Below are positions 2,510 through 11,252 of a DNA stretch of 13,692 nt, in pieces. This DNA comes from Streptomyces katrae (lineage in GTDB: Bacteria; Actinomycetota; Actinomycetes; Streptomycetales; Streptomycetaceae): the NCBI RefSeq assembly GCF_000966975.1, contig NZ_JZWV01000409.1, positions 1 to 13,692 of the forward strand. The letters run 5' to 3'. Both the position numbers and the translations under genes were made by a program. The notes under the pieces are model-generated. The model had not been told where the DNA came from and made no database searches. It was given only the letters and a program-made list of their open reading frames with translations. Positions within the stretch are counted from its first letter, which is position 1, and every line of letters begins with the position of its first letter.

Positions 2510-3712
2510 TCACCCCAGCAGCACCGGCAGGGTGCGCAGCCCCCGGTGGCGGGGGTTGCGCCACCACTGGGGGCGGGCCGTCGGGGTGGCCAGGCGGAGG
2601 GTGGGGTGGCGGGTGAGGAGGGTGGTGAAGGCGGTTTCGGCCTGGAGGCGGGCCAGGGGGGCGCCGAGGCAGTGGTGGATGCCGTGGCCGAAGGCCAGGT
2701 GGCCGGTCGCCGGGCGGGAGGGGTCGAAGCGGTCCGGGTCGGGGAAGACGGCGGGGTCGCGGTTGGCCGACAGCATGGCGATCTGGACGAAGTCCCCGGC
2801 GGGGATCGTCGTGCCGTCGATCGTCACCGGCTCGGTGGCGTAGCGCATGGTGGCGATGGAGAACGGGCTCTCGTGGCGCAGGACTTCCTCGATGAAGGCA
2901 CCCGTGCGCGAGGGGTCGGCGCGGAGTGCGGCCAGTTCGCGGGGGTGGGTGAGCAGGGCGTGGACGCCGTTGGAGATGAGGTTGGCGGTGGTCTGGTGGC
3001 CCGCCGCCACCAGCAGGAAGCTCATGGAGGTGATCTCCCGCTCGCTGAGCCGGTCCCCGTCGTCGTGGGCGTGGATCAGTGCGGTCAGCAGGTCGTCGCC
3101 GGGGTGGGCGCGCTTGTGGGCGAGCAGGGCCCGGATGTGTCCCACCAGGGCCTCGGCGGTGGGGACGGAGACCTCCCCGTCGCCCTCTTCGCCGTTGAGG
3201 GTGGCCGCCCAGGCCTCCAGGATGTGCCCGGCCCCCTCGGAGGCGCCGAGCAGGTCGAAGACGACGGCGAGGGGGAGGGGGACGGCGAAGTCCCGGACGA
3301 GGTCGGGCTCGGGGGTACGGGCCAGGCCGTCCAGGAGGCGGTTCACGTGGCCTTCGACCACCGGCCGCAGGGCCGCCACCCGGCGTGCCGTGAACGCCTG
3401 CTGGACCAGCCGGCGCAGCCGGGTGTGGGCGGGCGGGTCGGAGTTGAGCATGTGCGCGGTCAGCGCGCGGCCCGGGCCCGGACCCTCCTCGGAGCCGTCG
3501 CGGCGGTCGAAGGCCTCGGTCGCGGCGTTCTTGCTCAGCCGGGGGTCGGCGAGGGCGGCCTTGCAGGCGGCGTGCCCGGTGACCACCCAGCCCTCCAGCG
3601 GGGCCTCGCCGAGGATCCGCACCCGGTGCGCCCCGCCCTCCAGCTCCCGCCAGCGGCGGTAGGCGGGGTGGGGGTCGTCGAAGAAGGAGACCGGGACCTG
3701 TTCAACGGACAC
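2510..3712 (-). CDS. Cytochrome P450, second oxidase of the atropopeptide-like operon
   Basis: This is a soluble bacterial class I-type P450 of 400 residues, the normal length for the family. The I-helix motif is AGHQTT (237-242), the K-helix ExxR is E276-R279, and the heme loop is FGHGIHHCLG (341-350) with Cys348 as the axial ligand. The acidic residue usual before the I-helix Thr (AG-x-E/D-T) is Gln240 here, which may alter proton delivery. The start is GTG at 3712, with GAAGG about 10 nt upstream, and it overlaps the end of the preceding P450 gene by 11 nt (3702-3712), so the two should be translationally coupled. By position it is most likely a tailoring oxidase for the peptide made by this operon (hydroxylation or a further crosslink). 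No ferredoxin or ferredoxin reductase is encoded nearby, so electrons must come from partners elsewhere. The substrate is inference. Confidence 0.93.
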   Translation of the reverse strand: MSVEQVPVSFFDDPHPAYRRWRELEGGAHRVRILGEAPLEGWVVTGHAACKAALADPRLSKNAATEAFDRRDGSEEGPGPGRALTAHMLNSDPPAHTRLRRLVQQAFTARRVAALRPVVEGHVNRLLDGLARTPEPDLVRDFAVPLPLAVVFDLLGASEGAGHILEAWAATLNGEEGDGEVSVPTAEALVGHIRALLAHKRAHPGDDLLTALIHAHDDGDRLSEREITSMSFLLVAAGHQTTANLISNGVHALLTHPRELAALRADPSRTGAFIEEVLRHESPFSIATMRYATEPVTIDGTTIPAGDFVQIAMLSANRDPAVFPDPDRFDPSRPATGHLAFGHGIHHCLGAPLARLQAETAFTTLLTRHPTLRLATPTARPQWWRNPRHRGLRTLPVLLG

Positions 3713-4760
3713 GCCGTGCCGCCTTCGTGAGCCGTACGTCCTCCACCCCGAGGAGCCCGACCAGCGGTACCTTCGCCTTCCGCTGCGCGGGGTCGACCTC
3801 CAGTCCGGTACCGCGGATCAGGTCCAGCAGCAGTTCCGCGAGCGGCATGACCATGTGCCGGCCCCAGCAGCGCTCGGAGGAGTGCCCGAACGGCAGGTAG
3901 CCCGGGGCGGTCTCGGGGTCGAGGCGGTCCCACCGCCCGGGCCGGAACGCGTCGGGCTCCTCCCACAGGGCGGGGTCGCGGTGCGACAGCAGGGGCAGGA
4001 CGAGTACGTCGTCCCCGGCGCCGATGCGCGCGTCGAGGGCTCCGTACTCGGGCGAGGCGTAGCGCAGGATGTTCCAGGACGGGGGCAGCAGCCGGGCGGC
4101 CTCGTGGAGGATGTTCCGGTTGGGGGTGTCCGCGTCGAAGGGCGAGCCCAGCCAGAGGGCGTTCGCGACGAGGGTGGAGACGGTGAAACAGACGGGCGCG
4201 GCCGCCCTCCGGTAGATCCCCATCGCATGGCGGCGGTCGTGGTAGCCGTCCGCTTCGGCCAGCAGGCCGGCAATTCCGCTCGATGTCGTCCCGGGTTTTT
4301 TCCGCCAGGGGACGGCCGCGCCGGCGGCTATCACCGACCAGGTGAGTTTCGGGGTCAGCTCCAGGTTCCGGCTCATCAGAATGCGCAGTCGGCGCGGATC
4401 GCCGCCGAGAATGAGGTCGCGGAGGAAAAGGTGCCCGGTGAGGGGCCACGGGCCGGTGAGGTCGACTTCCTTCGGCAGGGGCCCTTCCAGGGCTTCCCTG
4501 ACGTCCCGCCCGATGACCCGCATCACCGCGGCGGCCTCGGTGCGCCCGATGGACCGGCCGTGCAGCGGCTTGAAGGTGGGGCGTTCGGTCTCGGTGGCCC
4601 GGCGGGCGGCGAGGATCCGGTCGGCGAGGGCGTGGCCGGCGACGCCCATGGTGTCGGGCTCCAGGCGGAAGGCGTCCTCGCCGGTGTACTCGCGCAGCAG
4701 GGCGGCGAGCCGGGGCGCGAAGACCGTGGTCCGGGCGGCCGGGAGGGGGGAGAGGGGCAT
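3702..4760 (-). CDS. Short divergent cytochrome P450, predicted atropopeptide crosslinking enzyme
   Basis: This is a 352-residue P450, about 50 residues shorter than typical. Landmarks are ExxR at E220-R223 (HEAARLLPP), the PERF-like segment FRPGRW (272-277), and the heme loop FGHSSERCWG (291-300) with Cys298. The usual second Gly of FGxGxRxC is Ser295-shifted (GHSS), and no AGxxT I-helix motif is visible; the equivalent region reads APVCFTVST (188-196). The start ATG at 4760 has GGAG 7 nt upstream. It lies 65 nt downstream of the AWYFWY precursor on the same strand. In the tryptorubin/atropopeptide family one P450 installs the carbon-carbon and carbon-nitrogen bonds between aromatic side chains of the core peptide, and this gene is the natural candidate for that role here. 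P450 assignment is firm; the substrate rests on gene context. Confidence 0.88.
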   Translation of the reverse strand: MPLSPLPAARTTVFAPRLAALLREYTGEDAFRLEPDTMGVAGHALADRILAARRATETERPTFKPLHGRSIGRTEAAAVMRVIGRDVREALEGPLPKEVDLTGPWPLTGHLFLRDLILGGDPRRLRILMSRNLELTPKLTWSVIAAGAAVPWRKKPGTTSSGIAGLLAEADGYHDRRHAMGIYRRAAAPVCFTVSTLVANALWLGSPFDADTPNRNILHEAARLLPPSWNILRYASPEYGALDARIGAGDDVLVLPLLSHRDPALWEEPDAFRPGRWDRLDPETAPGYLPFGHSSERCWGRHMVMPLAELLLDLIRGTGLEVDPAQRKAKVPLVGLLGVEDVRLTKAARRVR

Positions 4761-4790
4761 ACGGAGGCTCCGATGGGCCGTCGGTGCCGT

Positions 4791-4811
4791 CCCGGCCGGC
4801 GGGCGGCCGGG
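4791..4811 (-). other. Stem-loop between precursor gene and crosslinking P450
   Basis: CCCGGCCG (4791-4798) and CGGCCGGG (4804-4811) form a perfect 8-bp, all-GC stem with a 5-nt loop. It lies in the 65-nt gap after the precursor stop codon and about 30 nt before the P450 start. No U-tract follows. Its position suits a partial terminator or RNA-processing barrier that keeps precursor mRNA in excess over enzyme mRNA, a common arrangement in RiPP operons. The role is inferred. Confidence 0.5.
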
Positions 4812-4825
4812 GCGGCTCTGCCGGT

Positions 4826-4906
4826 CTAGTACCAGAAGTACCAGGCGCTCTTCTTGAGGCTCTTCTGACCGGAAACGGCATTACGGATGGCGAAAAGAAT
4901 CTTCAT
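4826..4906 (-). CDS. Atropopeptide-type RiPP precursor peptide, core AWYFWY
   Basis: I found this 26-codon gene by reading the minus strand upstream of the P450. ATG at 4904-4906 follows a strong purine-rich ribosome site (GGGAGAGGGGG) with 7-nt spacing; the stop is TAG at 4826-4828. The leader (residues 1-20) begins MKILFAIRNA and is basic, ending SLKKS. The last six residues are AWYFWY. Tryptorubin A comes from a precursor whose C-terminal hexapeptide is AWYIWY and is crosslinked by an adjacent P450, so this differs from that core only at position 4 (Phe for Ile). The predicted mature product is a rigid polycyclic hexapeptide with the leader removed after crosslinking. No peptidase gene is adjacent, so host proteases would trim it. 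The six T-ending codons all fall in the first 13 codons, unusual for this genome. Family assignment is confident; final structure and bond pattern are inference. Confidence 0.93.
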   Translation of the reverse strand: MKILFAIRNAVSGQKSLKKSAWYFWY

Positions 4907-5007
4907 CGCTGTGCCCCCTCTCCCATGAATGGCTTGTGGCCGCATTTAAGGATCACGGAACGCTGCCGGAGGCGTACCGGTGACGGTCCGCTGGAGAATG
5001 CGCGGCC

Positions 5008-5037
5008 ACCGTAGGCATCCGTCCCGCCGGGAAACAA
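5008..5037 (-). promoter_or_regulatory. Candidate sigma-70-type promoter of the RiPP operon
   Basis: On the minus strand TTGTTT (5032-5037) and TACGGT (5008-5013) are separated by 18 bp. The -10 fits the Streptomyces HrdB pattern TANNNT and the -35 keeps TTG. The predicted start near 5001 gives a leader of about 95 nt before the precursor ATG. It is the best-spaced pair I found in this gap, but such matches are common by chance. Confidence 0.35.
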
Positions 5038-5077
5038 CGATGCCCGGGACTTTATGTACGCTCCTACCAACACGGCC

Positions 5078-5110
5078 CGCGAATTCCAGCCGTCCGCCGC
5101 CGAATTCGCG
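5078..5110. repeat. Inverted repeat CGCGAATTC-N15-GAATTCGCG upstream of the RiPP promoter
   Basis: Perfect 9-bp arms at 5078-5086 and 5102-5110 are separated by 15 bp, with arm centres 24 bp apart, a little over two helical turns. The AATT cores stand out in GC-rich DNA. It sits about 40 bp upstream of the candidate -35 box, a suitable place for an activator or a looping regulator. The binding protein is unknown. Confidence 0.5.
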
Positions 5111-5331
5111 CCGCACCGCGCCGAAGCCGCAGCGGCGGAACGCCCCCTCGCGTATCACGCGCACGGGGAAGAACCTGCGGGTGGCGGCGTGCGGCATGCA
5201 CGCCCCGAGCGCGGCACGGCAGCCGCCACCCCACGACCCGCACTCGTCAAGGCACAGGACCCTTGGCGTCCCCTCGCGACGAATCGCTCACCATCAGGGT
5301 GATCAACAGGTGACGAACCGTCAACACCTCG

Positions 5332-5793
5332 TTAGAGGTACACGCGTGGTTCCCGTTTCAGCAGGACTTTTCCCAGGGGCGCCGACGGGGCCGCCGGGGG
5401 CTCCTCCACCGCACGGTCGATCTCGCACCAGATGCGCTTGCCCGCGCCCTCGCGCTGCCAGCCCCACCGGTCCGCGAGCCCGTCCACCAGCTCCAGCCCG
5501 CGCCCGCCCGTGTCGTCGCCGGCGGCCTGCCGGCGGGCCGGGGCGCGGTCGCTGGCGTCGGTGACCTCCACCCGTACGCCCGGACCCCCCAGGAGCATCC
5601 GCAGCACGGCCGGACAGCCCGTGTGCACGACCGCGTTCGTGACCAGCTCGGAGATCAGCAGGATCAGCGTCTCGGCGAGCGGTTCGTCGTCCCCTATACC
5701 GGACCCCGCCAGCCGGGACCGCGCCCACCGGCGCGCCCGTCCGACCTCGGCGGGGTCGGGTCCTACCTCCAGCTGTACCTGAAGCACCTGCAC
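5332..5793 (-). CDS. RsbW/SpoIIAB-like ATP-binding protein (anti-sigma-type histidine kinase fold)
   Basis: This is a 153-residue HATPase_c protein, typical of the many small regulatory ATPases in Streptomyces that act as anti-sigma or switch kinases. The N-box is ELVTNAVVH (residues about 49-57), the G1 box is VEVTDASDRAP (about 75-85), and the G2 box is GGRGLELVDGLADRWGW (about 95-111). The product is cytosolic, with no membrane segment. The start is GTG at 5793; the ribosome site is weak, and GTG at 5787 is an alternative. No partner (anti-anti-sigma, sigma factor, or XRE/DUF397 gene) is adjacent, so its target cannot be named. A perfect dyad at 5840-5860 lies 47 bp upstream and is probably its operator. 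It is on the same strand as the RiPP operon but 425 bp away, and is probably an independent unit. Confidence 0.9.
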   Translation of the reverse strand: MQVLQVQLEVGPDPAEVGRARRWARSRLAGSGIGDDEPLAETLILLISELVTNAVVHTGCPAVLRMLLGGPGVRVEVTDASDRAPARRQAAGDDTGGRGLELVDGLADRWGWQREGAGKRIWCEIDRAVEEPPAAPSAPLGKVLLKREPRVYL

Positions 5794-6113: not shown

Positions 6114-7103
6114 CTACCCCATCGCAGCCGCCTCCGCCTCGGCTACCGCCTCCTCCTCCGCTTCCGCCCCGAGGCGGGCCGCCAGGAGTTCCTCCGCCTC
6201 CGGCGCCGTGTGCCACTGCTCCGCCCGCACCCACGCCCGTTTCAGGTGCAGGTGCACGTCCGCCTCCCACGTGAAGCCCATCCCGCCGTGCACCTGGAGG
6301 CAGTCCCGGGCCCCGCGCACCGCCGCCTCGTCGGCGAGCAGCTTGGCGGCCGCGATCTCGGCCGCGTCACCCGTCACCGCCGCCGCGTACACCGCCGTAC
6401 GGGCCACCTCGGCGCGGACCAGCATCCGCGCGCACAGGTGCTTGACCGCCTGGAAGCCCCCGATCGGCTGCCCGAACTGCTCGCGCTCCCCCGCGTACCG
6501 CACGGCCAGCTCCACCGTCCGCAGCGCGCTGCCCAGCTGGAGCGCCGCCGTCAGCAGGGCCCCCGCCTCCCGGTACCCGGACGGCAGTACCCCGGAGGAC
6601 CGCCACAGCGGGGTCAGCGGGTCCACCGAGCGGACCGGCTCGCCGGCCGGGAGCCCCTCCGCCCCCAGGACCGCGTCGGCCTCCCCCAGGTACGCCACCA
6701 GCGGCCCGCCCAGGTCGAAGGCCGTCACGACCGCCGAGCCCGAAGCCGCCCCCGGGACCGCTCCGGCCGCCAGGTGCGTCGCCACCAGCGGCCCCGGCAG
6801 CAGCGCCCGCCCGGCCTCCTCGAAGACGAGCACCGCCTCCGGCAGGCCCAGCCCCACCCCGCCCTCGGACTCGGGGAGCCGGAGGGAGAAGAACCCCGCC
6901 TCACCGAGCTCCCGCCACAGCCGCCGGTCCACCACCGCCCCGGACGACACCACCCCGGACGACACCGCCCCCGACGACGCCACCCCGGACGACTCCGACG
7001 CCCGCACCGACTCCCGCAGCGCCTCCCGCCCGTACCGCCCCGCGAGCAGGTCGCGGATGCCCGCGCGCAGGTCCCGCTGGTCCTCCGTCAGCCGGAAGTC
7101 CAC
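6114..7103 (-). CDS. Acyl-CoA dehydrogenase, short subunit (FadE28-like partner)
   Basis: This 329-residue flavoprotein would help oxidise an acyl-CoA to the 2-enoyl-CoA. It opens MDFRLTEDQRDLRAGIRDLL, typical of the N-terminal ACAD helices, and near the C-terminus has the FAD-contact segment HGGMGFTWEADVHLHLKRA. It is short for the family (usually about 380), as are the non-catalytic subunits of heterotetrameric actinobacterial ACADs such as FadE28. Start is GTG 7103, 6 nt after the stop of the 384-residue partner, so the two are coupled. Residues 38-57 are four exact-length SSGxx units encoded by a 60-bp repeat (6933-6992), an insertion between the first helices. No Glu is obvious at the usual catalytic positions, consistent with the partner supplying it. 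The acyl substrate is unknown. Confidence 0.9.
   Translation of the reverse strand: MDFRLTEDQRDLRAGIRDLLAGRYGREALRESVRASESSGVASSGAVSSGVVSSGAVVDRRLWRELGEAGFFSLRLPESEGGVGLGLPEAVLVFEEAGRALLPGPLVATHLAAGAVPGAASGSAVVTAFDLGGPLVAYLGEADAVLGAEGLPAGEPVRSVDPLTPLWRSSGVLPSGYREAGALLTAALQLGSALRTVELAVRYAGEREQFGQPIGGFQAVKHLCARMLVRAEVARTAVYAAAVTGDAAEIAAAKLLADEAAVRGARDCLQVHGGMGFTWEADVHLHLKRAWVRAEQWHTAPEAEELLAARLGAEAEEEAVAEAEAAAMG
6933..6992 (-). repeat. Four tandem 15-bp units inside the short ACAD gene
   Basis: Four in-frame 15-bp units encode SSGVA, SSGAV, SSGVV and SSGAV in succession. Because the unit is a multiple of three, copy-number changes keep the frame. The segment falls in a surface loop between N-terminal helices where relatives are not expected to carry it. 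Confidence 0.7.
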
Positions 7104-7109
7104 GACCGC

Positions 7110-8264
7110 TCACCGCCCCTTCGGCAGGCCGAGGATCCGCTCGGCGACGATGTTCCGCTGGATCTGCGAGGTCCCCGCCGCGATCGTGTACGAGAGCGAC
7201 GAGAGCCGCTCAAGCGTCCACTCCTCCTCCAGGGACAGGGCGCCGGCCCCCAGCACCTCCGCCGCCGCGTCGTACAGCTCCTGCCGGGCGTGCGAGTACG
7301 CCAGCTTGAAGACGCTGCCCCCGACGCCGGGAACCCCGCCCGAACCCTGGGCCTCGCTGACGTTCCACTGCGTGAGCCGCCACAGCGCACCGAACTCCCC
7401 GTACAGCCGGCCCAGCCGGCGCCGCAGCACGGGGTCGTCCCAGCGGCCGTTGGCCTTCGCCGCCCGCGCCAGCGCGCCCAGGGTGCGCCGGCAGGCGACG
7501 ACCTCGCCGACGAAGGCGGTGCCCCGCTCGAAGGAGAGGGTCACCATCGTGACCCGCCAGCCGTCGTTCTCGGCGCCGACCCGGTTGGCGACCGGCACCC
7601 GGACCTCGTCGAGGAACACCTCCGCGAACTCGGCCGACCCCGCGAGGGTCCGCAGTGGCCGGACCGTGACGCCGGGGGCGTCCATCGGCATGGCCAGCCA
7701 GGAGATCCCCTTGTGCTTGGGCGCGGCCGGGTCCGTCCGTACGAGCAGCTCGCACCAGTCGGCGACCTCGGCGTGCGAGGTCCAGATCTTGGAGCCGGTG
7801 ACCACGTACGCGTCCCCGTCCCGGACCGCCTTCGTGCGCAGCGCCGCCAGGTCGGAGCCGGCGCCCGGCTCGCTGAACCCCTGGCACCACACCTCCTCCC
7901 CGCGCAGCACCGGCGGCAGCCAGCGCGCCCGCTGCTCGGCGGTGCCTTCGGCGGCGATCGTCGGTCCGGCGTGCAGCAGGCCGACGAAGTTGGCGCCGAC
8001 GTACGGGGCGCCGGCCCGCTCGGTCTCCTCCAGGAAGATCAGGTGCTGGGTCGGGGTGGCCCCGCGGCCGCCGGCGTCGACGGGCCAGTGCAGGCCCGCG
8101 TACCCGGCGTCGTACAGCCGGCGCTGCCAGCCGAGGTCGTAGGCGCGCCGGCCGGGCCAGTCGTCGGGCGAGGGCCTGGCGGGCAGTTCGGGCAGCACCT
8201 TGGCGAGCCAGGCCCGCAGCCGGGCCCGGAACTCCTGCTCCTCCTCGGTGTGGGCGAGGTCCAT
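7110..8264 (-). CDS. Acyl-CoA dehydrogenase, long catalytic subunit (FadE29/ChsE4-like)
   Basis: This 384-residue acyl-CoA dehydrogenase is full length. Landmarks are the N-terminal helix MDLAHTEEEQEFRARLRAWL, the flavin/substrate strand CQGFSEPGAGSDLAALRT (127-144), GSKIWTSHAE (157-166), and the C-terminal ending AAGTSQIQRNIVAERILGLP (362-381). In medium-chain ACADs the catalytic Glu precedes the Gly of this last motif (YEGT); here it is Ala363. Instead Glu246 in LSFERG lies on the helix used by isovaleryl-CoA dehydrogenase and by mycobacterial heterotetrameric steroid ACADs, so Glu246 is the likely base. The following gene encodes a shorter ACAD, together suggesting an alpha2-beta2 enzyme. 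ATG 8264 follows the amidohydrolase stop with one intervening base. The substrate may be a cyclic or branched acid, judging from the neighbours. Confidence 0.93.
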   Translation of the reverse strand: MDLAHTEEEQEFRARLRAWLAKVLPELPARPSPDDWPGRRAYDLGWQRRLYDAGYAGLHWPVDAGGRGATPTQHLIFLEETERAGAPYVGANFVGLLHAGPTIAAEGTAEQRARWLPPVLRGEEVWCQGFSEPGAGSDLAALRTKAVRDGDAYVVTGSKIWTSHAEVADWCELLVRTDPAAPKHKGISWLAMPMDAPGVTVRPLRTLAGSAEFAEVFLDEVRVPVANRVGAENDGWRVTMVTLSFERGTAFVGEVVACRRTLGALARAAKANGRWDDPVLRRRLGRLYGEFGALWRLTQWNVSEAQGSGGVPGVGGSVFKLAYSHARQELYDAAAEVLGAGALSLEEEWTLERLSSLSYTIAAGTSQIQRNIVAERILGLPKGR

Positions 8265-8265
8265 G

Positions 8266-9459
8266 TCAGACCAGGTCCAGGCCGAGCATGCGGATGGCGT
8301 TGCCGCGCATCAGCTTGTGGACGGTCTCGTCGTCCAGGCCCTTCACATGGTCGAGGGCGACCTCCTTGGTGTGCGGGAAGGTCGAGTCCACGTGCGGGTA
8401 GTCGGTCTCGAAGGTGGCATTGTCGCGGCCGACGACGTCCAGCGAGGCGATGCCGTGCTTGTCGCGGAAGAAGCAGCAGAAGATCTGCCGGTAGTAGTAC
8501 GTGGACGGCGGCTCGGGGATCAGGCCGCGGACCCCGCCCCAGGCGCGGTGCTCCCGCCAGACGTCGTCCGCGCGCTCCAGGGCGTAGGGGATCCAGCCCA
8601 TCTGGCCCTCGCTGTAGGCGAGTTTCAGCGTCGGGAACTTCACCAGGACCCCGCTGAAGAGGAAGTCCATCATCGAGGCCATGGCGTTGTTGAAGCTCAG
8701 CGAGGCCTGGACGGCGGGCGGGGCGTCCGGGGAGGCGGCGGGCATCTGCGACGAGGACCCGATGTGCATGTTCACGACCGTGCCGGTCTCCTGGCAGACG
8801 GCGAAGAAGGGGTCCCAGTAGCCGGAGTGGATAGACGGCAGCCCCAGGTGGGTGGGGATCTCGGAGAAGGTCACGGCCCGCACCCCGCGGGCGGCGTTGC
8901 GGCGGATCTCGGCCACGGCGAGGTCGATGTCCCACAGCGGGATGATGCACAGCGGGATCAGCCGGCCGCCGCTGTCGCCGCACCACTCCTCCACCATCCA
9001 GTCGTTGTACGCGCGCACGCAGGCGAGGGCGACCTCCTTGTCCTTGGCCTCGGCGAAGGTCTGCCCGCAGAAGCGGGGGAAGGTGGGGAAGCAGAGGGAG
9101 GCCTCGACGTGGTTGAGGTCCATGTCGAGCAGCCGCGCCTTGGGGTCCCAGCAGCCGCGGCGCATCTCCTCGCGGGTGATGCCCTCCAGGGTCATGTCGT
9201 CGCGGTCGAAGCCGACGGCGGCGATGTTGCGCTTGTACGGGAACTTGAGGTCCTCGTAGATCCACCAGTCCGTCGGCGGGCCGTCCGGGTCCATGGAGAT
9301 CACGTACTTGCCGCCGGTGTACTCCAGCTCGCCGATTCCGGCGGTCAGGGGCTTGGGGCCGCGGTCGCGGTACTTCGCGGGCAGCCACACGTCGAAGAGG
9401 TGGGCGGGCTCGATCACGTGGTCGTCGACGCTGATGATCCGAGGCAGTTCCAGGGCCAT
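8266..9459 (-). CDS. Amidohydrolase-2 family metal-dependent hydrolase/decarboxylase-like protein
   Basis: This 397-residue TIM-barrel protein belongs to the PF04909 amidohydrolase superfamily. Metal-site candidates are Asp12/His14 in VDDHVIEP (11-18), His232 in VNMHIG, and Asp353 in ETDYPHVDS. The family often has AHxG at the third barrel position, but here it reads YSEGQMGW with Glu284, so the site is somewhat divergent. Relatives hydrolyse or decarboxylate ring compounds, and in actinobacteria they often sit beside acyl-CoA dehydrogenases, but the reaction here is unknown. I place the start at ATG 9459, with GAGAAGGAG about 10 nt upstream; the frame extends to 9504, but that lies upstream of the predicted transcription start (about 9497). 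It is the first gene of a three-gene leftward operon. Confidence 0.92.
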   Translation of the reverse strand: MALELPRIISVDDHVIEPAHLFDVWLPAKYRDRGPKPLTAGIGELEYTGGKYVISMDPDGPPTDWWIYEDLKFPYKRNIAAVGFDRDDMTLEGITREEMRRGCWDPKARLLDMDLNHVEASLCFPTFPRFCGQTFAEAKDKEVALACVRAYNDWMVEEWCGDSGGRLIPLCIIPLWDIDLAVAEIRRNAARGVRAVTFSEIPTHLGLPSIHSGYWDPFFAVCQETGTVVNMHIGSSSQMPAASPDAPPAVQASLSFNNAMASMMDFLFSGVLVKFPTLKLAYSEGQMGWIPYALERADDVWREHRAWGGVRGLIPEPPSTYYYRQIFCCFFRDKHGIASLDVVGRDNATFETDYPHVDSTFPHTKEVALDHVKGLDDETVHKLMRGNAIRMLGLDLV

Positions 9460-9482
9460 GTGCTCGCGCTCCTTCTCCCAAA

Positions 9483-9499
9483 TCTGATGCATCGTCAGA
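9483..9499. promoter_or_regulatory. Operator-like palindrome TCTGA-N7-TCAGA over the amidohydrolase start site
   Basis: The core CTGATGCATCGTCAG (9484-9498) matches 12 of 15 bases with the second palindrome at 9562-9576. It covers the predicted start site of the leftward operon. Its size and TGA/TCA half-sites suit a TetR-family repressor; no such gene is in the window. Confidence 0.55.
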
Positions 9500-9502
9500 A
9501 AC

Positions 9503-9532
9503 AAGCTAGCCCCGCCACCCCTGGACCGACAA
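9503..9532 (-). promoter_or_regulatory. Promoter of the amidohydrolase/ACAD operon
   Basis: On the minus strand TTGTCG (9527-9532) and TAGCTT (9503-9508) are 18 bp apart, a good HrdB-type match (TANNNT). Predicted start is near 9497, giving a leader of about 38 nt to ATG 9459. Confidence 0.55.
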
Positions 9533-9550
9533 GCGCCGGAGCCCTACGCT
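9521..9550 (+). promoter_or_regulatory. Promoter of the acyl-CoA synthetase gene
   Basis: CTGGAC (9521-9526) and TACGCT (9545-9550) are 18 bp apart. The -35 abuts that of the leftward promoter, making a back-to-back pair. Predicted start is near 9557, about 55 nt before ATG 9612. Confidence 0.45.
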
Positions 9551-9561
9551 CTGCCGTTGAT

Positions 9562-9581
9562 CTGACTCACCGTCAGCTGAC
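9562..9581. promoter_or_regulatory. Operator-like palindromes CTGAC-N5-GTCAG and GTCAGCTGAC
   Basis: CTGAC (9562-9566) and GTCAG (9572-9576) form a perfect 15-bp dyad. The right arm is shared by a second perfect 10-bp palindrome, GTCAGCTGAC (9572-9581). It lies just downstream of the predicted start site of the synthetase gene, as expected of a repressor site, and resembles the palindrome at 9483-9499. Confidence 0.6.
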
Positions 9582-9611
9582 GTCGGGCGGTACGCCCAGG
9601 GGAGGTCCGCG

Positions 9612-11252
9612 ATGACGACGCCGGAACCGACGACGGAACCGACGACGGACACGACGCCGGACACGGCGCCGGCACCCGCGCCGGCGGAACCCGGAGCGGC
9701 GGCCGCCACCGCCGTCGAGCTGAGCCGCTCCCGCACCCTCTGGGAGCTGATCGCCCGCCGCGCCGCCCTCACCCCCGACGCCCCGGTCCTCATCGAGGCC
9801 GCCGACGACCCCGCCGCGGACCGCACCCTCACCTTCGGCGCCCTGCGCGACCGCGCCGAACGCGTCGCCGCCGGCCTCCACGACCAGGGCGTGCGCCCCG
9901 GCACGGTCGTCGCCTGGCAGCTCCCGACCCGCATCGAGACGGTCCTGCTGTCGGCCGCCCTCGCCCGCCTCGGCGCCGTCCAGTCGCCCGTGATCCCCTT
10001 CTACCGTGACCGCGAGGTCGCCTTCGCCCTGCGCTCCTCGGAGGCCGAGTACTTCGCCGTCCCCGGCACCTGGCGCGGCTTCGACCACACCGCCATGGCC
10101 GCCCGGCTCGGCGCGCGCGGCGTCTTCGAGGCGTACGCGGACGCGGACCTGCCCGACGGCGACCCGGCCGTGCTGCCCCCGCCGCCCGCCGACGGTACGG
10201 CCGTCCGCTGGATCTACTGGACCTCCGGCACCACCTCCGACCCCAAGGGCGTCCTGCACACCGACCGCTCACTGATCGCGGGCGGCTCCTGCCTGGCCCA
10301 CGCCCTGCGGCTGACCCCCTCCGACGTGGGCTCGATGGCCTTCCCCTACGCGCACATAGCCGGCCCCGACTACACGGTGATGCTGCTGCTGTACGGGTTC
10401 CCGGCGGTCCTCTTCGAGAAGTTCGCGATGCCGGACGCGCTGGACGGCTACCGCCGCCACGGGGTCACCATCGCCGGCGGCTCCACCGCCTTCTACTCCA
10501 TGTTCCTCACCGAGCAGCGCAAGGACCCCGCCATGCCCCTGCTCCCGAGCCTGCGCCTGCTCGCGGGCGGCGGCGCCCCCAAGCCGCCGGAGATCTACCA
10601 CGCGGTGGTGCGCGAGCTGGGCTGCCAGCTGACCCACGGCTACGGCATGACCGAGGTCCCGATGATCACCATGGGCTCCCCGGACGACACCCCCGAGAAC
10701 CTCGCCACCACCGAGGGCCGCCCCCCGGAGGGCATGTCCATCCGCGTCACCACCCCCGACGGCACCCCCCTGCCCGCCGGCACCGACGGCGAGGTCCGGC
10801 TGCGCGGCGAGGCGGTCTGCCAGGGCTACCTGAACCAGAAGGACGCCACCGGGGTCTTCGACTCCGACGGCTACCTGATCACCGGCGACCTCGGCCACCT
10901 CACCCCCTCCGGCCACCTGGTCCTCACCGGACGCAGCAAGGACGTGATCATCCGCAAGGGCGAGAACATCTCGGCGAAGGAGATCGAGGACCTCCTCCAC
11001 CAGCTCTCCGGCGTCGGCGACGTGGCCGTCATCGGCCTCCCCGACGAGGCGCGCGGCGAGCGCGTCTGCGCCGTGGTCGAGCAGCCGCCCGGAGCGGCCC
11101 CGCTGACCCTCCCCCAGGTCACCGCCTACCTCCGCGCCCAGGGCCTGTCCCCGTACAAGCTCCCCGAGCAGCTGGAACTGGTCGACGCCCTGCCCCGCAA
11201 CGACGCCCTGCGCAAGGTGCTCAAGTACCGGCTGCGCGAACGCTATTCCTGA
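9612..11252 (+). CDS. AMP-dependent acyl-CoA synthetase (cyclohexanecarboxylate-CoA ligase-like)
   Basis: This ANL-superfamily enzyme of 546 residues should activate a carboxylic acid with ATP and CoA. The P-loop-like A3 motif is YWTSGTTSDPKG (202-213), A5 is GYGMTE (343-348), the hinge region holds YLITGDLGHL (421-430) with Asp426, and GRSKDVIIRKGENI (440-453) carries Arg441. The catalytic C-terminal Lys is Lys535 in DALRKVLK; the Gly usually before it is Arg. The first 35 residues are a Thr/Pro/Ala-rich tail outside the fold. ATG 9612 has GGGGAGG 6 nt upstream. Divergent genes encode the amidohydrolase and dehydrogenases that would act on its product. The overall type resembles cyclohexanecarboxylate and medium-chain ligases, but the substrate cannot be fixed from sequence alone. 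Confidence 0.95.
   Translation: MTTPEPTTEPTTDTTPDTAPAPAPAEPGAAAATAVELSRSRTLWELIARRAALTPDAPVLIEAADDPAADRTLTFGALRDRAERVAAGLHDQGVRPGTVVAWQLPTRIETVLLSAALARLGAVQSPVIPFYRDREVAFALRSSEAEYFAVPGTWRGFDHTAMAARLGARGVFEAYADADLPDGDPAVLPPPPADGTAVRWIYWTSGTTSDPKGVLHTDRSLIAGGSCLAHALRLTPSDVGSMAFPYAHIAGPDYTVMLLLYGFPAVLFEKFAMPDALDGYRRHGVTIAGGSTAFYSMFLTEQRKDPAMPLLPSLRLLAGGGAPKPPEIYHAVVRELGCQLTHGYGMTEVPMITMGSPDDTPENLATTEGRPPEGMSIRVTTPDGTPLPAGTDGEVRLRGEAVCQGYLNQKDATGVFDSDGYLITGDLGHLTPSGHLVLTGRSKDVIIRKGENISAKEIEDLLHQLSGVGDVAVIGLPDEARGERVCAVVEQPPGAAPLTLPQVTAYLRAQGLSPYKLPEQLELVDALPRNDALRKVLKYRLRERYS

What the first reader, a model, noticed from the sequence alone, without database searches (positions are those of the whole stretch)
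4826..4906. Unannotated 26-codon RiPP precursor with atropopeptide core AWYFWY
A tiny gene with a strong ribosome site ends in AWYFWY and is followed by a P450 on the same strand. Tryptorubin A, the founder of the atropopeptides, derives from a precursor ending AWYIWY modified by a neighbouring P450. The Phe at position 4 adds a fourth-position aromatic ring, so five of six core residues are aromatic, which could permit a different crosslink pattern or a new congener. At 26 codons it is below the size that gene callers normally report.
Basis: partly seen in the sequence, partly recalled or inferred. Interest (0 to 1): 0.95.

Follow-up and report, generated by a model that had tools for sequence, protein, structure and literature searches.

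The report
Two-P450 atropopeptide cluster with Phe core
A 26-codon gene in a probable Streptomyces genome encodes a tryptorubin-family peptide precursor ending AWYFWY and sits just upstream of two cytochrome P450 genes on the same strand, which are predicted to stitch the peptide's aromatic side chains into a rigid four-bond cage; it is a new member of a known peptide family, not a new kind.

Summary
Window 4826-4906 (minus strand) encodes MKILFAIRNAVSGQKSLKKSAWYFWY and scores 54.3 bits against NCBIfam's tryptorubin-family precursor model NF038372 (cut-off 33). The next gene, 3702-4760, is an atropopeptide-type P450, 73% identical to a Streptomyces laurentii homologue. The core is recurrent: 10 of 394 genomes of the family carry it. 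Position 4 varies (F, I, L, G, H, A, R, V among 124 loci), so a new crosslink through Phe has no support here. Unexpectedly, Phe4 tracks with the second P450 (19 of 23 Phe4 loci, 7 of 101 others), and two of the four exceptions hold remnants of it. Shared ancestry explains part: one phylogenetic test is significant, another lacks power, and a syntenic cluster has Ile with the second P450. No product has been observed.

The parts
4826..4906 (-). atropopeptide (tryptorubin-family) precursor, 26 aa; leader MKILFAIRNAVSGQKSLKKS, predicted core AWYFWY
   Evidence: sequence; NF038372 54.3 bits, cut-off 33; leader and KSLK-type motif in relatives
4914..4924 (-). purine-rich putative ribosome-binding stretch before the ATG
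   Evidence: sequence; function not tested
3702..4760 (-). P450-1, atropopeptide-forming type cytochrome P450 (352 aa), heme Cys298 in FGHSSERCWG
   Evidence: Pfam p450; 73% to an S. laurentii, 72% to an S. jumonjinensis and 71% to an S. clavuligerus homologue; alignment A1
2510..3712 (-). P450-2, LauB2-type cytochrome P450 (400 aa), heme Cys348 in FGHGIHHCLG; overlaps P450-1 by 11 bases
   Evidence: Pfam p450; 66-68% to S. laurentii and Streptomyces sp. MMG1121 homologues; full-length relative beside P450-1 at 26 of 124 loci, the window included

Best explanation
This is a compact three-gene atropopeptide cluster: a 26-residue tryptorubin-family precursor is predicted to be crosslinked on its AWYFWY core first by the adjacent family P450 (Trp2-Trp5 C-C, Trp2-Tyr3 C-N and Trp5-backbone C-N bonds) and then by a LauB2-type second P450, which would likely add a Trp5-Tyr6 aryl ether, giving what would be a Phe4 congener of laurentirubin after a host protease presumably cuts off the leader. 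Shown here: the precursor family, both P450 families, the gene order and its recurrence in relatives. Inferred from the characterised lau cluster: which bonds form and in what order. Untested: expression, protease, product. Phe4 is most likely an uncrosslinked side chain; why it tends to go with the second P450 is open. Expected [M+H]+ if right: 858.3246 (WYFWY minus 6 H) and 929.3617 (AWYFWY minus 6 H); 860.3402 and 931.3774 (minus 4 H) if only P450-1 acts.
For: NF038372 hit. P450-1 73% identical to S. laurentii P0089. P450-2 66-68% identical to S. laurentii P0136 and MMG1121 P0132; P0089 and P0136 are both listed on a contig of 23,510 bases, and PMC11450843 (introduction and results read) reports two-P450 clusters in S. 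laurentii and MMG1121, LauB1 giving tryptorubin B and LauB2 the fourth bond. In two genome samples, P450-2 relatives above a strict threshold all lie beside P450-1: 6 of 6 genomes with E <= 1e-130 among 392 of the genus and 12 of 12 with E <= 1e-110 among 394 of the family; the samples overlap, include the window, and only the best 4 candidates per genome were scored. Where no strand or distance was imposed (best two hits per locus printed), every P450-2 hit above 50% identity lay on P450-1's strand, downstream, within 128 bases; three weaker hits (28-38%) lay over 5 kb away. Pairwise distances of the two P450s over 26 loci correlate at r 0.91, 0 of 2000 permutations as high. At more distant loci only these genes persist, apart from weak acyl-CoA dehydrogenase matches (43% at L180, 26% at L015). 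The published laurentirubin masses 824.3401 and 895.3760 fit minus 6 H on WYIWY and AWYIWY, the arithmetic used for the prediction.
Against: No product, transcript or expression was seen. LauB2 itself was not identified by accession; P0136 is assigned by organism, contig length and the paper's description. At 66-68% identity the bond formed can differ; one P450 gave two non-overlapping bond patterns on one core in the varsorubin case (PMC11450843). The S. lavendulae relative of P450-2 (P0124) has Arg where the heme-ligand Cys should be, so the gene can lose function in close kin. No protease or transporter gene was seen among the ten neighbouring genes scanned; earlier characterised atropopeptide clusters are also said to lack a protease (PMC11450843).
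Confidence: 0.75

Rival explanations
1. Only P450-1 acts on the peptide; P450-2 is inactive or serves something else, and the product is a Phe4 tryptorubin with three bonds (minus 4 H).
For: Most atropopeptide loci lack a full P450-2 (98 of 124); the S. lavendulae relative lacks the heme Cys; two Phe4 loci (L012, L142) hold only fragments of P450-2.
Against: In the two genome samples P450-2 relatives lie only beside P450-1 and share its history (r 0.91); the window's own copy keeps the heme motif FGHGIHHCLG, and all 26 census copies keep the Cys.
Confidence: 0.15
2. The Phe4 ring is itself a crosslinking partner, so the product has a new bond pattern.
For: Phe4 tracks with a second oxidase: 19 of 23 Phe4 loci against 7 of 101 others.
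Against: P450-2 also goes with Ile4 (6 loci) and Val4 (1 locus), including the syntenic cluster L186; the lau peptides have Ile there; phenylalanine is harder to oxidise than Tyr or Trp (general knowledge).
Confidence: 0.07
3. P450-2 is active but installs a different fourth change (hydroxylation or another bond) than the LauB2 ether.
For: Only 66-68% identity to the S. laurentii enzymes; P450-2's closest solved relatives by sequence include the tailoring hydroxylases PikC and TamI (their roles recalled).
Against: Same gene order, same cluster type and a core differing from lau at one position not known to be crosslinked.
Confidence: 0.15
4. The ORF is a chance reading frame.
For: Very short; no promoter found by the consensus scan.
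Against: NF038372 E 1.1e-14; the same peptide architecture lies upstream of P450-1 at the other loci examined. Twelve relatives compared by codon differ by 0-7 synonymous bases and 1-6 replaced codons and all keep AWY[F/I]WY; this is no formal test of selection.
Confidence: 0.01

Closest known systems
laurentirubin (lau) cluster of Streptomyces laurentii (PMC11450843)
   Same: precursor, family P450 and second P450 in one small cluster; P450s 73% and 66-68% identical to S. laurentii homologues; Tyr6 and Trp5, the ether partners, are present in the core
   Different: core AWYFWY here; the lau peptides carry WYIWY (PMC12352619, passages), so Phe replaces Ile at position 4; here the two P450 genes overlap by 11 bases; product not known
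tryptorubin A/B (try/trp cluster)
   Same: NF038372 precursor family, KSLK motif, WYxWY core, family P450
scabrirubin, varsorubin, amyxirubin
   Same: atropopeptides made by a family P450
   Different: cores TWFIWYS and SWYQWL for the first two (PMC11450843; amyxirubin core not seen by me), and no second P450 reported for them in the sections read
biarylitides and other P450-made RiPPs
   Same: P450-made aryl crosslinks in short ribosomal peptides
   Different: biarylitides come from a five-residue precursor (abstract in the listing); the aminopyruvatide P450 model ApyO scores P450-1 at 64 bits against a cut-off of 525

Membership tests
atropopeptides (tryptorubin family) | precursor matches the curated family model | tested here: met
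   NF038372 54.3 bits, cut-off 33
atropopeptides (tryptorubin family) | KSLK or related motif between leader and core | tested here: met
   KSLK at residues 15-18 of 26; definition from PMC11450843, which places it at residues 17-20 of the putative precursors
atropopeptides (tryptorubin family) | conserved Trp at core position 2 | tested here: met
   AWYFWY; definition from PMC11450843
atropopeptides (tryptorubin family) | adjacent family-defining P450 | tested here: met
   P450-1, 65 bases downstream; 70-86% identical to the 12 homologues aligned
atropopeptides (tryptorubin family) | product with P450-installed crosslinks | not testable with these tools
   needs expression and MS/NMR
laurentirubin-type (two-P450) atropopeptides | second P450 of LauB2 type next to the family P450 | tested here: met
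   that P0136 is LauB2 is inferred, not read from an accession
laurentirubin-type (two-P450) atropopeptides | Trp5-Tyr6 aryl ether in the product | not testable with these tools
   needs NMR

The most novel reading that the evidence does not exclude
Phe at core position 4 marks a recurrent class of two-P450 atropopeptides: the Phe ring shapes the cage so that the LauB2-type enzyme can close the fourth (ether) ring, so one core residue predicts a four-bond product from sequence alone.
Probability: 0.3. Interest if true: 0.55.

Novelty: new member of a known kind. Interest (0 to 1): 0.4.

Why it matters
In the paper read here, the four-bond atropopeptides rest on laurentirubin, with two further second-P450 cases cited but not readable by me. 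This cluster and 25 other distinct loci found here with both P450s show that the two-P450 type is recurrent, has its own second P450, and more often carries Phe than Ile at position 4 (19 against 6). That gives chemists a defined set of clusters for rigid caged peptides and a sequence rule (Phe4 with a LauB2-type P450) that can be tested by point mutation.

Tried and rejected
Structure prediction gave nothing usable: P450-1 with 13 close sequences reached mean pLDDT 34 and P450-2 67 with 11; no fold search was run. PDB sequence search gave only general P450s for P450-1 (best 1.3e-8) and, for P450-2, macrolide-type and other tailoring P450s (60 of 391 shown). Promoter and terminator consensus scans of 4740-5330 found none. 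Independent-pairs tests of Phe4 against P450-2 lacked power (1.8 pairs the same way, 0.1 opposite). The MerR gene (1648-2508, +) was considered as the cluster's regulator and set aside: no match at E <= 1e-15 in the 16 relatives compared. Flanking HATPase, acyl-CoA dehydrogenase and amidohydrolase genes match at high identity only in the closest kin (L126, L183, L186 of 16) and were set aside as cluster parts. Whether the AWYFWY core is already listed in the supplement of PMC11450843 could not be checked (no supplement look-ups allowed). Full-text searches for AWYFWY (0 papers) and WYFWY (7 papers, titles unrelated, not opened) do not settle it. The paper cited there for two other second-P450 cases (Angew 2024, e202314046) and the 2022 Angew atropopeptide paper are not held.

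Full report
What is there. On the minus strand, 4906 to 4826 reads MKILFAIRNAVSGQKSLKKSAWYFWY and ends in TAG. After a gap of 65 bases, 4760 to 3702 encodes a 352-residue P450, and 3712 to 2510, overlapping it by 11 bases, a 400-residue P450. All three are on one strand. The contig belongs to a genome of 8,047,724 bases in 1873 contigs.

Is it more than chance. NCBIfam's tryptorubin-family precursor model NF038372 matches end to end with 54.3 bits against a cut-off of 33. Over whole genomes the model passes its cut-off in 42 of 392 genomes of the genus (44 of 392 at E <= 0.001) and gave no match in 14 control genomes. Twelve relatives compared codon by codon differ from the window by 0-7 synonymous bases and 1-6 replaced codons, and all keep AWY[F/I]WY; this is not a formal test of selection.

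P450-1. Apart from the window's own protein, the best 119 listed relatives are 71-86% identical over 94-100% of the length (416 proteins at E <= 0.001 among 7996 scored candidates), and include S. laurentii (73%), S. jumonjinensis (72%) and S. clavuligerus (71%). PMC11450843 (introduction and results read in full; first part of the references; further passages) describes atropopeptide clusters in S. laurentii (lau) and S. jumonjinensis (jum), so P450-1 belongs with the family-defining enzyme. The heme motif is intact. In 394 genomes of the family, P450-1 relatives at E <= 1e-110 occur in 52 genomes and 8 of 17 genera.

P450-2. It is 66-68% identical to S. laurentii and MMG1121 proteins. [quoted passage not shown] P0089 (P450-1 type) and P0136 (P450-2 type) are both listed on a 23,510-base S. 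laurentii contig; that they are LauB1 and LauB2 is my inference. In the genome samples, P450-2 relatives lie beside P450-1 in 6 of 6 genomes (of 392, E <= 1e-130, neighbours) and in 12 of 12 (of 394, E <= 1e-110). The samples overlap and include the window, and only the best 4 candidates per genome were scored. More distant P450s (about 48-59%, Nocardia and others) were not examined for context.

Census. I pooled 80 P450-1-selected named loci (130 candidates, 80 kept by the tool), 44 NF038372-selected loci of the genus, two of them below the model's cut-off, the remaining P450-1-selected loci of the family sample (42 loci) and the window: 167. The seven loci were first fetched for their AWYFWY core, but all seven genomes are among the 52, all of which are in the pool. 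After removing copies with identical P450-1 residues, 131 remained. I dropped 3 in which my motif search found no precursor (L058, L074, L153; later showed cores AWYHWY, AWYIWY and AWYIWY behind motif variants; none has P450-2) and 4 with too little downstream sequence (L009, L028, L073, L159). Of 124, core position 4 is I 42, L 26, F 23, G 20, H 10, and A, R, V once each. A full P450-2 is present in 19 of 23 Phe4 loci and 7 of 101 others (6 Ile, 1 Val; none of 26 Leu, 20 Gly, 10 His). With the 3 dropped loci put back the second figure is 7 of 104. Of the four Phe4 loci without it, two (L012, L142) keep fragments of 105 and 132 residues at 73% and 62% identity just downstream of P450-1; two (L036, L044) show none. 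My definition of presence required the same strand and a downstream position; one search imposed neither and gave the same placement for every hit above 50% identity.

How far to trust the association. Fisher's test gives 4e-13, but the loci are related. On a quick maximum-likelihood tree Phe4 changes 8 times and P450-2 9 times. A dependent model of the two traits beats an independent one (likelihood ratio 18.9, 4 degrees of freedom, p 8e-4; 1.2e-3 when fragments count as present), but such tests can be misled by a few deep events. Independent pairs agree in direction (1.8 against 0.1) and are far from significant. An earlier tree of 99 loci had every P450-2 and every Phe4 inside one clade of 50 rows.

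How it most likely works. By analogy with lau, the leader and KSLK motif would dock the precursor on P450-1, which would join Trp2 to Trp5 (C-C), Trp2 to Tyr3 (C-N) and Trp5 to the backbone (C-N). P450-2 would then join Trp5 to Tyr6 through oxygen, and a host protease would release the peptide, with trimming of Ala1. All bond assignments are inferred from PMC11450843. There laurentirubin with four bonds shows a loss of six hydrogens, which my mass table reproduces for WYIWY (824.3402) and AWYIWY (895.3774), and from which 858.3246 and 929.3617 follow for the Phe congener. Phe4 lies between the crosslinked residues. In a related system the corresponding position tolerates many residues: of the I25 variants tested with ScaB (A, L, P, Q, T, E, H, N, Y, R; Phe was not among them) only Arg failed (PMC12352619, passages).

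Cluster borders and regulation. Among 16 relatives compared, the three closest (L126, L183, L186) share the right-hand flank (HATPase, acyl-CoA dehydrogenases, amidohydrolase). At the other 13 (P450-1 70-79% identical) only P450-1 with its precursor and, where present, P450-2 remain, apart from weak acyl-CoA dehydrogenase matches at L180 (43%) and L015 (26%); the MerR gene matched in none of 16. No protease, transporter or consensus promoter was seen.

Verdict. A genuine atropopeptide cluster, new as a member, of the laurentirubin (two-P450) type. The core AWYFWY was found in no paper text searched, but supplements could not be read and the published survey of 683 clusters may well include it. 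The chief surprise is the link between Phe4 and the second P450, which is suggestive and easily tested.

Noticed in passing
protein P0124 (S. lavendulae), alignment A2 column 401: The relative of P450-2 has Arg in place of the heme-ligand Cys (HHRLG instead of HHCLG), although it is otherwise 86% identical: a likely dead or repurposed second P450.
   Followed up: partly
L012 at 7322-7636 and L142 at 9237-9629: Fragments of a P450-2 gene directly downstream of P450-1 in two Phe4 loci: the second P450 has apparently been lost there while the Phe core stayed.
   Followed up: partly
window 5332-5793 (-): HATPase_c_2 (anti-sigma-type ATPase domain) gene upstream of the precursor, matched in place only in the closest relatives.
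   Followed up: partly
   Followed up: no
window 6114-11252: Two acyl-CoA dehydrogenase genes, an amidohydrolase and a divergent AMP-binding ligase form a separate neighbouring group, conserved in the closest relatives.
   Followed up: no
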